Positions 4,594 through 52,882 of a stretch of 64,000 nt of DNA are shown piece after piece. Every line of letters begins with the position of its first letter. Positions within the stretch are counted from its first letter, which is position 1. The stretch lies in the NCBI GenBank assembly GCA_016184115.1, contig JACPDH010000045.1, forward strand, positions 20,685-84,684, in the 5' to 3' direction. The notes under the pieces were generated by a model. It worked only from the letters and a program-made list of their open reading frames with translations. It was not told the DNA's origin and made no database searches. Position numbers and translations under genes: made by a program. Source of the stretch: Acidobacteriota bacterium. Lineage in GTDB: Bacteria > Acidobacteriota > Thermoanaerobaculia > Gp7-AA8.

Positions 4594-4764
4594 AGGTCAT
4601 AGGTCGGCAGGCAGGTCATAGGTCATAGGTCAAAGCAGGCAGCCAGTCATGCTGTCGGCTTCGGATGAGCCTCGAGGGGTAGCTCCGCACGTGACCGTTG
4701 ACCATGCAGGTTGCTGGACAGCGCCTGCCATGACCTTTGACCTTTGACCTATGACCTCTGACTC
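4594..4764. repeat. Facing AGGTCAW heptad arrays (copy 1)
   Basis: The spacer between the dehydrogenase and lyase genes is built of 7-base units. On the left (4594-4640) are AGGTCAT, AGGTCGG, AGGTCAT, AGGTCAT, AGGTCAA and AGCAGGC, with one 5-base phase slip. On the right (4730-4764) the complementary units ATGACCT, TTGACCT, TTGACCT, ATGACCT and CTGACTC appear in the opposite orientation. The arms can pair around an 89-base centre. A closely related facing pair sits at 22972-23155. The right array ends about 7 bases before the ribosome binding site of the lyase gene. Confidence 0.85.
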
Positions 4765-4781
4765 TACTTCAAGGAAGGGTG

Positions 4782-5711
4782 ATGAAAAGGTTGCTGATTC
4801 ACGAAGTCGGCCCGCGCGACGGGATCCAGATCGAGAAGCAGGTCGTCCCGATCGAGACGAAGATCGGCTGGATCGAGATGCTGATGGCCTCGGGCGTCGA
4901 CATCGTCCAGGCCGGCTCGTTCGTCAACCCGGCGAAGGTGCCGCAGATGGCAGACACCGACGCGATCTTCAACTACTTCCGTTCCTCGCATCACCGGCGT
5001 GAGGGTGTGCTGCTTTCCGGGCTCGTCCTCAACGAGAAGGGGCTCGAGCGCGCGATCTCATGCGGAGTCGAGTTGATCTGCATGGGCGTCTCGGCGAGCG
5101 ACACGCACAGCCGGAAGAACACCGGCATGGGCACCGACGAGGCAATCGCGAGGATCATCCCGATGGCGAGACAGGCGATCGCCGCGGGCCGCCCGGTGCA
5201 GCTCTCGGTGCAGTCGGCGTTCGGCTGCGGCTTCGAAGGGGAGGTCCCGCGCGCACGCGTGATCTCCATCGTCGAGCGCTATCTCGAGGCCGGACTCACG
5301 ACGATCAGCCTCGCCGACACCGCGGGCCACGCGAATCCGCGCCAGGTCACGGAGCTGTACGAAGCGATGTACACGATCGCCCCCGACGTCGAGGCGTCGT
5401 GCCATTTCCACGATACTTACGGCATGGCGCTCGCAAACTGCTTCGCCGCACTCGAGGCTGGCGTCACCGCATTCGAGTCGGCCTTTGCCGGGTTAGGCGG
5501 CTGCCCGTTCACGAAGTTGAGCGGAGGAAACGTCGCAACCGAGGACCTCGTGCACATGCTGCAGCGTGCCGGTATTCGTCACGACATCGGGCTCGATCCG
5601 ATCATCGTCGCAGCAAAGGCGGCTGAAGCGTTCTTCGGCCGGCAGCTGCCCGGCGTGATTCATCGCACTGGAGCGATACCGGCGGGCTCGCCCGCCGAAA
5701 TCGAGAATTGA
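4782..5711 (+). CDS. HMG-CoA lyase-like DRE-TIM enzyme
   Basis: 309 residues of the hydroxymethylglutaryl-CoA lyase family. The HEVGPRDGIQ start holds the catalytic Arg-Asp, CHFHDTYGMALAN the metal-binding HxH pair, and GGCPFTKLSGGNVATEDL the flexible loop with the catalytic cysteine (about Cys241). Family members cleave 3-hydroxy-3-methylglutaryl-CoA or related 3-hydroxyacyl-CoAs such as citramalyl-CoA into acetyl-CoA and a keto acid. ATG 4782 is preferred to the adjoining GTG because AAGGAAGGG lies just upstream. A CoA-transferase follows, which could make its CoA-thioester substrate; the pairing is common in acid degradation clusters. The exact substrate is unknown. Confidence 0.85.
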   Translation: MKRLLIHEVGPRDGIQIEKQVVPIETKIGWIEMLMASGVDIVQAGSFVNPAKVPQMADTDAIFNYFRSSHHRREGVLLSGLVLNEKGLERAISCGVELICMGVSASDTHSRKNTGMGTDEAIARIIPMARQAIAAGRPVQLSVQSAFGCGFEGEVPRARVISIVERYLEAGLTTISLADTAGHANPRQVTELYEAMYTIAPDVEASCHFHDTYGMALANCFAALEAGVTAFESAFAGLGGCPFTKLSGGNVATEDLVHMLQRAGIRHDIGLDPIIVAAKAAEAFFGRQLPGVIHRTGAIPAGSPAEIEN

Positions 5712-5806
5712 GCATTGAGAGAACAGGATTGAGAAAATGAGAAGGTTGGCAGGCCGGTGGCTGGGCGAACGCCCGCACTTCCGCCATCTCTCAATCCTCA
5801 GTTGTC
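5704..5806. repeat. Degenerate ATTGAGA heptad repeat, facing arms
   Basis: From the last codons of the lyase gene into the spacer, the units ATTGAGC, ATTGAGA and ATTGAGA recur at multiples of 7 bases (5707-5737). The right side (about 5784-5800) carries the complement, TCTCAATCCT. The 119-base spacer holds nothing else recognisable except the ribosome binding site of the next gene. The string TTGAGCATTGAGAGA also occurs at about 15447. Confidence 0.6.
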
Positions 5807-5830
5807 GAATCGCAACTCGCGGAGCCCAAA

Positions 5831-51404: not shown

Positions 51405-51490
51405 CGGTTCGTCCTCGGAAGGGTCCTGCGGGCAAACAAAACGGCGGGAAGACGATGACACGTCCTCCCGCCGGCAATGAATCAGTTCAG

Positions 51491-52507
51491 CTAAGCGACT
51501 GCGGCGCGGCCAGGCTCGACAGCGTCGTAGGCGAGCGCCTCTTTGAGCGCCACGATCGCGATCTCGAGCTGCTTGTCGTCGGGGGGCTTCGTCGTGATCC
51601 GCTGCAGCCAGAGCCCGGGCGCGATCAGTCCGCGGCAGATCTTGCTGTCGAGGTGCCTCGCCGAGAAGCGGATGATCTCGTAGGCGATCCCGGCAATGAG
51701 CGGGAGGAGCACCACGCGACCTCCGAACTTGACGACGAACGGCGCCGTCGTCGGGATCAGCGAGAAGACGACGATCGAGACAGCCATGACGAAGAGCAGG
51801 AAGCTCGTCCCGCAGCGCGGGTGAAGCGTCGACTTTCCACGCGCGTTCTCGACGGTCAGCTCCTCGCGCGCCTCGAACGTATAGACCGTCTTGTGCTCGG
51901 CCCCGTGGTACTGGAAGAGCCTCTTGATGTCGTCCATCATCGAGATCGCCAGCACGTAGCCGAAAAAGAAGATCGCGCGAATCACGCCGTCGATCACGTT
52001 GTACGTGAAGTGCCCCATTCCGGGCAGGGCGTAGTGCTTGATCGCGTTCGTGATTCCGAGCGGAGCCAGCACGAACAGGGCGATCCCCAGAATGAACGCG
52101 AACGCCATCGTGCCTGCAATCGCGCCATTCGAGAGCTCCTGCTCACCCTCCTCGTCGACCGCCGAGGCGACCGCGGAAAAGTTGAGGGCACGCATCCCGA
52201 GAATCAGCGATTGCACGAGCACGACAGAGCCGCGCAACACCGGAAATCGGAGAAACGGGTACTTCTTCGTGACCGAAACGAGCTTGTCGTTGCGGAGCGC
52301 GATCCCTCCGTCCGGCTGGCGGACGGCGACGGCATAGCCGGTGAGCGAGCGCATCATGACGCCCTCGATCACCGCCTGCCCACCGATCAGCATGTCGACG
52401 TTCCGGTCCGGCTTCGAGTCGGTACCGGAGGTCAGCCCGTTGGTGATCGAGCCGAGAAGGCCAGCCGACAGGCGGGCCGTGGCTGCCCAGCGCCGTCGGA
52501 GGTTCAT
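51491..52507 (-). CDS. DUF1385 membrane protein
   Basis: 338 residues. LIGGQAVIEGVMMRSLTGYA is the family signature. Membrane segments lie at about residues 130-155, 180-200, 235-260 and 265-290, and RLFQYHGAEHKTVYTFEA holds conserved His residues. DUF1385 (YqhQ-like) proteins commonly lie between rpmE and prfA; the function is unsettled. It starts 4 bases after rpmE, so they are translated from one mRNA. Confidence 0.93.
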   Translation of the reverse strand: MNLRRRWAATARLSAGLLGSITNGLTSGTDSKPDRNVDMLIGGQAVIEGVMMRSLTGYAVAVRQPDGGIALRNDKLVSVTKKYPFLRFPVLRGSVVLVQSLILGMRALNFSAVASAVDEEGEQELSNGAIAGTMAFAFILGIALFVLAPLGITNAIKHYALPGMGHFTYNVIDGVIRAIFFFGYVLAISMMDDIKRLFQYHGAEHKTVYTFEAREELTVENARGKSTLHPRCGTSFLLFVMAVSIVVFSLIPTTAPFVVKFGGRVVLLPLIAGIAYEIIRFSARHLDSKICRGLIAPGLWLQRITTKPPDDKQLEIAIVALKEALAYDAVEPGRAAVA

Positions 52508-52511
52508 AGGC

Positions 52512-52718
52512 TTACGCCTTCTCCTTCGCGTAACGCTTCTGGAAGCGGTCGATGCGGCCGGCCGTGTCGAGAAGCTTCTGCTTGCCCGTGAAGAACGGGT
52601 GGCACTTCGAGCAGATCTCGATGCGGAGATCGCTCTTGGTCGAACCGGTCGCCCAGGTCTCGCCGCACGCGCAGTGAACCTGAACCTGGTGGTATTTCGG
52701 ATGGATTTCAGCCTTCAT
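52512..52718 (-). CDS. rpmE: 50S ribosomal protein L31
   Basis: 68 residues. MKAEIHPKYHQVQVHCACGE and IEICSKCHPFFTGKQK give the four-cysteine zinc-binding (C+) form of L31. First gene of the rpmE-DUF1385-prfA run. The 164-base spacer upstream is divergent with ppk2. Confidence 0.97.
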   Translation of the reverse strand: MKAEIHPKYHQVQVHCACGETWATGSTKSDLRIEICSKCHPFFTGKQKLLDTAGRIDRFQKRYAKEKA

Positions 52719-52882
52719 ATCGATTTCCTCTACAGAATCTTATGGCGAAACGGGCAAACGCCGGTCTCATGGCTATTTATTCTAGCGGCAGGCAACACCG
52801 GAGGGACTACGACCTCCGCCTGCGCTCTTTTCGCTTTCAATTTCTCAATTTTCAATTTTCAATTCCTCTCACGGAGGCCCCC
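52719..52882. repeat. Divergent spacer with hairpin and TTCAATT heptads
   Basis: GCAGGCAACACCGGAGG faces CCTCCGCCTGC (about 52790-52824), a hairpin. TTCAATT-type units follow at 52837-52864 with a near 7-base period, then the ppk2 ribosome binding site GGAGG. Promoters for rpmE and ppk2 are expected here. Confidence 0.55.

What the first reader, a model, noticed from the sequence alone, without database searches (positions are those of the whole stretch)
4594..52864. Genome-wide style of 7-base-periodic intergenic repeats
At least ten spacers (near 4.6, 5.7, 10.2, 10.6, 15.0, 15.6, 21.7, 23.0, 36.4, 49.4 and 52.8 kb) are written in 7-base units of unrelated sequence: AGGTCAT, ATTGAGA, GAACGTA, GGCGAAA, GAATTGA, GAACGCG, TTCAATT. 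Many can be phased as GAA followed by four variable bases. The units differ, but the period does not, and most arrays occur as facing pairs. Heptanucleotide repeats are known in heterocystous cyanobacteria (STRR sequences), but the hairpin arrangement and mixture of units here seem distinct. A slippage or templated process with a 7-base step, or a protein reading one site every 7 bases, could produce it.
Basis: partly seen in the sequence, partly recalled or inferred. Interest (0 to 1): 0.85.

Follow-up and report, generated by a model that had tools for sequence, protein, structure and literature searches.

The report
Facing seven-base repeats at gene borders
Many gaps between genes in this bacterium carry two mirror-image arrays of seven-base repeats, one at each gene border, and in a sister genome some of the same gaps hold a pair built from a different seven-base word, so the layout lasts while the words change, likely because these hairpin-like DNA pieces spread and are recopied during replication.

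Summary
In 0.6 Mb drawn without regard to repeats, intergenic DNA has a lag-7 autocorrelation peak (z = 24) and coding DNA has none. With the window, this sample holds 89 intergenic arrays of period 7, against 13 or fewer at other periods from 4 to 12. The genome is a Thermoanaerobaculia-like Acidobacteriota. In it and its sister genome, ten unit families recur and arrays face each other across the spacer (96 in that order, 4 reversed). Within 60 bp of a gene, 210 of 225 point the same strand inward, at stop and start ends alike. Of 15 orthologous spacers with arrays in both genomes, 5 have unrelated units in both arms, 3 differ in words inside the GAA frame, 5 kept their family and 2 are mixed. 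Other genera show the layout with other words. Tests for RNA structure, intrinsic terminators and a reverse transcriptase gave no support; a RAYT origin got little. The closest precedent is the facing GGGAATC heptamers of Xanthomonas. Best reading: hairpin-type DNA cassettes at gene borders, likely rewritten by seven-base slippage and fold-back copying. Function is untested.

The parts
4594..4640 (+). left arm, AGGTCAW family, just after a stop codon at 4584-4586
4725..4765 (-). right arm of the same pair (TGACCTW), before the called start codon at 4782
   Evidence: the sister genome has an AGGCGAR pair in this spacer
5697..5745 (+). left arm, GAATTGA family, overlapping the stop codon at 5709-5711
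   Evidence: same family in the sister genome
5785..5806 (-). short right arm of the 5.7 kb pair
   Evidence: sequence; not scored as an array
10163..10262 (.). GAA-anchored composite hairpin, 24-base loop
   Evidence: not present in the orthologous spacer of the sister genome
10626..10656 (+). AGGCGAA array, right arm weak
   Evidence: longer AGGCGAR pair in the sister genome
15000..15062 (+). left arm, ATTGAGA then AGGCGAR-like units
   Evidence: lies in the first 100 bases of a gene called 14091-15101 (-), whose true start is probably lower
15180..15210 (-). weak right arm (TCAATTC units) facing 15000-15062
   Evidence: sequence; not scored as an array
15590..15622 (-). CGATTCT array (GAATCGA family)
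21618..21710 (+). GAAYGCG array starting at the stop codon of the long gene 15792-21620
21785..21934 (.). 150-base palindromic element: GAA-anchored hairpin core (21813-21906) inside ends that resemble IS4-type terminal repeats
22970..23003 (+). left arm, AGGTCAW family, in a divergent spacer
23128..23150 (-). weak right arm of the 23.0 kb pair
   Evidence: sequence; below array threshold
36372..36460 (.). GAA-anchored composite hairpin, 13-base loop
52835..52868 (-). TTTCAAT array before the called start codon at 52883

Best explanation
Spacers of this genome carry inverted pairs of seven-base-unit arrays, one arm at each gene border with the G-rich strand pointing into the spacer, and they are likely hairpin-type DNA cassettes that spread between gene borders and are rewritten by seven-base slippage and fold-back copying during replication. 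Shown: period 7, recurrence of the same units at unlinked loci, facing order, strand polarity at gene borders, composite arms that match their own partner better than the arms of other hairpins, pairs that differ as a whole between sister genomes beside conserved spacer DNA (two spacers aligned), and the same layout with other words in other genera. Inferred: that a tandem-type pair moves or is replaced as a unit; that slippage changes unit number; that template switching within the palindrome keeps composite arms alike; that gaps beside stop codons are kept because insertions elsewhere would damage promoters or genes. No function and no dedicated enzyme is shown; one subset with 150-base bodies and IS4-like ends could be mobilised by an IS4-family transposase.
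For: Neighbouring arrays stand F-R 96, R-R 13, F-F 11, R-F 4 times in 176 array-bearing spacers of G000 and G001 (612 spacers of 50 bp or more examined, 300 arrays kept of 302). Within 60 bp of a gene end the family's F strand points inward in 210 of 225 arrays: 140 of 152 at stop ends, 70 of 73 at start ends. Unit-blind test in eight genomes, ties dropped: inward strand G>C in 274 of 310 arrays; neighbours inverted 107, direct 12, undecided 1, pairs with little similarity not counted. Edges of array-free spacers are near even (131:103 at 3' ends, 150:172 at 5' ends). Orthologous spacers: 29 compared; 16 scored in both genomes, one of them a chance GC run, 8 in neither, 1 and 4 in one only; with that one moved, p = 0.005 for co-occurrence. 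In five the units of both arms are unrelated, e.g. window 4587-4781 AGGTCAW versus AGGCGAR; at L061 15226 the neighbouring spacer DNA is conserved while the pair and its loop differ. In 39 composite hairpins an arm matches its own partner at 0.804 of the variable positions and arms of other hairpins at 0.524 (maximum 0.599 in 300 shuffles). Seven hairpins align over 136-160 bases at 82-92% identity, in both orientations, and three more at about 76% (top 25 alignments), so this group was copied as units; an IS4-family element with similar ends is present.
Against: Loops are mostly unique: 41 of 48 had no second copy in the 1.02 Mb sample, which is odd for a mobile cassette. Pure tandem arms are weakly or not coupled to their own partner (own-arm percentile 0.59 AGGTCA, 0.65 GAAYGCG, 0.64 AGTCCTN, 0.38 AGGCGAR, 0.35 GAATTGA). 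No target duplication or clean empty site was seen in the 11 spacer alignments; no systematic search for them was made. Unit purity falls only mildly away from the gene (0.81 to 0.75; 46 versus 33 arrays, 16 ties). One distant genome, G077, does not follow the G-inward rule (4 versus 5). The orthologue set is small and three of its G000 loci (L019, L023, L024) were chosen for AGGTCA hits.
Confidence: 0.45

Rival explanations
1. Ordinary simple sequence repeats: polymerase slippage with a preference for seven-base steps creates arrays wherever spacers tolerate them; the pairing is a by-product.
For: Heptamers were reported over-represented among bacterial repeats in a 2007 study, with slippage at a polymerase contact suggested (reference 33 of PMC4692102; recalled as Mrazek et al., not read). 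Orthologous arrays of one family differ in length.
Against: The same units recur at many unlinked loci, neighbours are inverted 107 to 12, and GAA anchors persist while the fill varies.
Confidence: 0.15
2. A protein, for example a nucleoid or border-binding factor, reads one anchor every seven base pairs on the G-rich strand, and selection keeps some heptad pair at gene borders whatever its exact words.
For: GAA anchors with variable fill; strand polarity at both kinds of gene end; spacers that keep an array pair while its word differs; same polarity in Xanthomonas.
Against: No candidate protein was sought or found; the families do not share one anchor; most spacers lack arrays (53 of 253 spacers of 100 bp or more have one).
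Confidence: 0.17
3. Transcribed RNA hairpins that end or stabilise transcripts.
For: In the window plus repeat-blind sample arrays favour convergent (16 of 49) and codirectional (31 of 134) over divergent spacers (5 of 70), and G-inward arrays lie a median 4 bp from stop codons.
Against: Arm mismatches of tandem pairs show no G-U bias for the transcribed strand (++ 27 on it versus 25; -- 16 on it versus 24; composites ++ 3 versus 2, -- 7 versus 7); an uneven 43 versus 24 in convergent spacers, where either strand may be read, is unexplained. Terminator-like hairpins are as common with arrays (20 of 149) as without (29 of 253), p = 0.64. Polarity is the same at start ends.
Confidence: 0.1
4. 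REP-type or insertion-sequence by-products: hairpins mobilised by RAYT or IS transposases.
For: Y1 transposase genes are present (8 in G000); three of six Y1 loci looked at have one heptad-like array within about 1.5 kb, e.g. an AGTCCT array about 560 bases downstream of the gene in L167; one subset of hairpins has IS4-like ends.
Against: The RAYT-like gene in L022 is directly flanked by CGCGTAGCG-type palindromes and the nearest heptad array is about 1 kb away; three of the six Y1 loci have no array; most composite hairpins show no shared ends beyond the arms; G022 has Y1 genes but no arrays in 40 kb.
Confidence: 0.08
5. Terminal addition: an enzyme adds G-rich heptads to both ends of a break between genes, and the ends are then joined, giving head-to-head arrays like a telomere fusion.
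For: G-rich strand runs away from both gene borders, same unit mostly on both sides, unique filler between.
Against: No RVT_1 reverse transcriptase in G000 or G001; units are not purer toward the tip; units shared by many loci would need a template.
Confidence: 0.05

Closest known systems
Convergent GGGAATC heptamer repeats of Xanthomonas (Rehm et al. 2015, PMC4692102)
   Same: Intergenic, period 7, paired in convergent orientation (70 in Xcc, 75 in Xac), mostly within 0-50 bp of genes with the G-rich repeat on the coding strand downstream and the non-coding strand upstream, some overlapping stop codons, under-represented between divergent genes.
   Different: One G4-forming unit type there; here ten or so unit families in one genome, most without G-runs, GAA-anchored composite arms, and different units at orthologous spacers. 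There, 83% of repeats were also present at the same place in the sister species.
TAACTGA direct repeats of Beggiatoaceae and cyanobacteria (MacGregor 2015, PMC4679880)
   Same: Intergenic heptamers in many copies, mixed with other heptamers in Microcystis, indels mostly in 7-nt steps between two Cyanothece strains.
   Different: Direct (169 sets, one indirect), and in the main genome mostly just upstream of start codons.
STRR heptanucleotides of heterocystous cyanobacteria
   Same: Tandem heptamers (recalled; one sentence on Calothrix seen in PMC4692102).
   Different: Inverted border pairs are not described for them in what I saw.
REP palindromes (Di Nocera et al. 2013, PMC3733652, abstract only)
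   Different: 20-40 bp with GTAG or CGTC tags, no seven-base register; GTAG-like palindromes flank the L022 RAYT here and are not the heptads.

Membership tests
Facing heptamer repeats of the Xanthomonas type | period 7, intergenic | tested here: met
Facing heptamer repeats of the Xanthomonas type | convergent (facing) pairs | tested here: met
   F-R 96, R-F 4
Facing heptamer repeats of the Xanthomonas type | G-rich strand sense downstream of genes and antisense upstream, close to the gene | tested here: met
   140 of 152 and 70 of 73; G>C inward 274 of 310 in eight genomes
Facing heptamer repeats of the Xanthomonas type | single G4-forming unit GGGNATC | tested here: not met
   ten unit families, most without G-tracts
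TAACTGA-type direct repeats | direct orientation | tested here: not met
   inverted 107, direct 12
REP/RAYT elements | GTAG/CGTC tag and direct flanking of the RAYT gene | tested here: not met
   L022 RAYT-like gene directly flanked by CGCGTAGCG palindromes; of six Y1 loci three have a single heptad-like array at a distance and three have none
IS4-type MITE | terminal inverted repeats like those of a resident IS4-family element | tested here: inconclusive
   five paired-end copies of 150-399 bp, including window 21785-21934, at up to 3 mismatches per end; most of the 39 composite hairpins lack these ends; target duplication not tested
Reverse-transcriptase-templated repeats (telomerase, retron, DGR type) | RVT_1 gene in the genome | tested here: not met
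   no match in G000 (97% complete) or G001 (90%)
Intrinsic transcription terminators | arrays stand in for the usual hairpin plus T-run | tested here: not met
   20 of 149 versus 29 of 253, p = 0.64
Phase-variation repeats | switching of gene expression by copy number | not testable with these tools
   needs strain or population data

The most novel reading that the evidence does not exclude
Gene borders across much of Acidobacteriota carry a two-armed device with a fixed grammar (seven-base register, facing arms, G-rich strand inward from both genes) and an exchangeable vocabulary: any heptad word may fill it, words are swapped in both arms together at a given spacer, and a factor reading every seventh base, or copying with a seven-base step, keeps the grammar.
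Probability: 0.2. Interest if true: 0.82.

Novelty: new variant of a known kind. Interest (0 to 1): 0.62.

Why it matters
Heptamers are reported over-represented among bacterial simple repeats, for reasons that the papers read here leave open. In this lineage period, pairing and strand polarity are kept while the words differ between genera and between orthologous spacers, and an unrelated Xanthomonas case obeys the same border geometry. That separates the rule from the sequence and makes the question testable: is seven a property of copying enzymes, of a binding protein, or of a family of hairpin elements?

Tried and rejected
RNA hairpin selection: no strand-specific G-U excess in codirectional spacers. 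Intrinsic terminators: no difference. Reverse-transcriptase templating: no RVT_1. RAYT/REP origin: direct flanks are GTAG-type palindromes in L022; weak proximity of heptad arrays at three of six Y1 loci. Growth from one end: no rise of purity toward the tip. Composition bias at gene edges: array-free edges are near even. Shared loops as mark of a transposon: 7 of 48 loops had relatives. Searches for print found no description of these Acidobacteriota repeats; the library lacks most subscription papers. In the 39-hairpin table the GAA anchors were part of the search, so their low entropy there is not independent evidence; searches are. In one search the backward control is also non-zero in many genomes and larger than the forward count in some (for example G099, 134 versus 289), presumably because arrays with other anchors match it. 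One stretch, L130 of G017, had no readable bases (GC 0.00).
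Full report
What is there. The window lies in a 4.42 Mb, 126-contig genome whose nearest named relative for one window protein is a Thermoanaerobaculia MAG at 85% identity. I called genes with a simple codon-usage caller of my own and measured autocorrelation separately in coding and intergenic DNA. In the window the intergenic lag-7 peak has z = 7.6; in 40 further loci chosen without looking at repeats (346 spacers, 71.6 kb) z = 24.3, with peaks at lags 14, 21 and 28; coding DNA shows only the period 3. 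An array finder at fixed score gives 89 intergenic arrays at lag 7 and at most 13 at any other lag from 4 to 12 in the window plus that sample, against 0-3 in resampled spacers. One of its eleven sites (49.4 kb) is not an array at that score.

Anatomy. In 1.02 Mb of this genome 210 intergenic arrays score 11 or more (this set includes 20 loci picked for AGGTCA hits). I sorted them into about ten families: AGGTCAW, GAAYGCG, GAATGCA, AGGCGAR, GAACGTA composite, GAATTGA, AGTSCTN, GAATTTC, TTGTTAG and GAAGGGT. Some arms are pure tandem arrays, others are composites in which GAA recurs every seven bases and the four bases between vary: 169 five-unit runs with on average 4.2 different fills. Arms often come in facing pairs; 48 two-array spacers with opposite arrays and a loop of at least 25 bases have loops of 26 to 494 bases, and 58 of 129 array-bearing spacers show one scored array only. 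In 176 spacers of this genome and its sister, neighbouring arrays stand in the order F-R 96 times, R-F 4 times, F-F 11 and R-R 13; F is the orientation that each family shows on the left, so ten labels were fixed from the same data. Neighbours of clearly different families read F-R 16, R-R 8, F-F 6 and R-F 1.

Border rule. Within 60 bp of a gene end the F strand points into the spacer in 140 of 152 cases at stop ends and 70 of 73 at start ends. A test that ignores families, using only G versus C on the inward strand of arrays within 80 bp of a gene, gives 274 of 310 over eight genomes of the family, ties dropped; array-free edges are near even. Over all sampled genomes, arrays with the G-rich strand inward lie a median of 4 bp from stop codons, 51 of 177 overlapping them, and 28 bp from start codons. 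Arrays are commoner in convergent (16 of 49) and codirectional (31 of 134) than in divergent spacers (5 of 70) in the window plus repeat-blind sample.

Comparison with the sister genome. G001, the only genome of the same genus among the 30 relatives searched, has the AGGTCA family too and shares further families in the stretches read. Among 29 orthologous spacers, 16 score in both genomes, one of them (window 10107) only through a GC-rich chance run in G001; 8 score in neither, 1 in G000 only, 4 in G001 only. My reading of the 15: five carry pairs of unrelated units (window 4587, L019 4776, L023 5385, L058 2184, L061 15226), three keep GAA anchors with other fills (L023 4254, L057 8141, L024 11395, the last also with reversed facing), five keep the family (window 5712, L019 2256, L023 11002, L024 9431, L061 12389), and two are mixed (L023 6515, L038 6857). 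At L061 15226 and L057 8141 the alignment shows conserved DNA beside the changed pair, and the loops differ too.

Breadth. In samples of 48-120 kb, G004, G009, G008, G011, G013 and G015 of the same family have period 7 as the commonest intergenic period (31, 10, 9, 7, 10 and 2 arrays; next commonest lag 3, 4, 5, 4, 1 and 1), with words such as GGGTGTC, AGAGATC, AGTCCTG, GAAGGCA, GAGTGAC and GAAACCA. Family members G002, G005, G006, G007, G010 and G012 showed none in stretches of 3-20 kb. G018, of another family in the order, has 5 such arrays in 60 kb; G022 and G028 of the class have none in 40 and 20 kb. The GAA five-anchor pattern occurs in 132 of 297 genomes of the phylum, for example 1,921 times in G077 against 66 for the backward control and 849 against 18 in G088. 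In stretches chosen because they held matches, G088 shows the full layout (18 of 19 G-inward, 6 inverted and 1 direct neighbours), whereas G077 does not show the polarity (4 versus 5).

How it may work. Thirty-nine composite hairpins were collected by anchors; at the variable positions an arm matches its own partner at 0.804 but arms of other hairpins at 0.524. Mismatches between arms do not prefer G-U on the transcribed strand of codirectional spacers; convergent spacers show an uneven 43 versus 24 that I cannot explain. The coupling thus looks more like DNA copying than RNA selection; quasipalindrome template switching is the known process that does this (recalled, no call). Seven hairpins share a body of about 150 bases at 82-92% identity in either orientation, three more at about 76%, so at least this group was copied as a whole; the ends of several resemble those of an IS4-family element in L052. 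For pure tandem pairs the coupling is weak or absent and no ends or target duplications were seen in the alignments made, so movement as a unit is inferred. I favour hairpin cassettes rewritten by slippage and fold-back copying; what keeps them at gene borders, and whether anything reads them, stays open.

What is known. Read here: in PMC4692102, found passages and sections 13, 14 and 16; in PMC4679880, abstract, outline and section 10; in PMC3733652, abstract and outline. Xanthomonas GGGAATC repeats share the pairing and the border orientation, so the arrangement is a known kind. The many interchangeable units and the difference of unit at orthologous spacers are what I did not find in print.

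Noticed in passing
   Followed up: no
L052 17930-19335: IS4-family element (Nterm_IS4 and DDE_Tnp_1) with ends AATGGCCTTAAGTTAAG, close to the ends of the 150-base GAA hairpin elements.
   Followed up: partly
L022 15075-16446: RAYT-like Y1 transposase gene flanked by CGCGTAGCG palindromes, with a run of GTGTCGCGTAGCTCCATCCC copies downstream.
   Followed up: partly
L167 2496-2741: Long AGTCCT/AGGACT heptad array about 560 bases downstream of a Y1 transposase gene.
   Followed up: no
window 15000-15101: The gene called 14091-15101 (-) has a heptad array inside its first 100 bases, so its real start codon is probably further in.
   Followed up: no
L099 4518-4737: Another palindrome (GTGGCGCAGGCACTCCTGCCTGCGC type) in the sister genome occupies a spacer where G000 has a GAA hairpin; a similar one stands in L099 10897-11128.
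   Followed up: no
L201, L202 (G077): Heptad-rich distant genome whose arrays do not follow the G-inward border rule in 30 kb.
   Followed up: no
convergent spacers of G000 and G001: Arm mismatches are uneven between strands (43 versus 24) in convergent spacers only.
   Followed up: no
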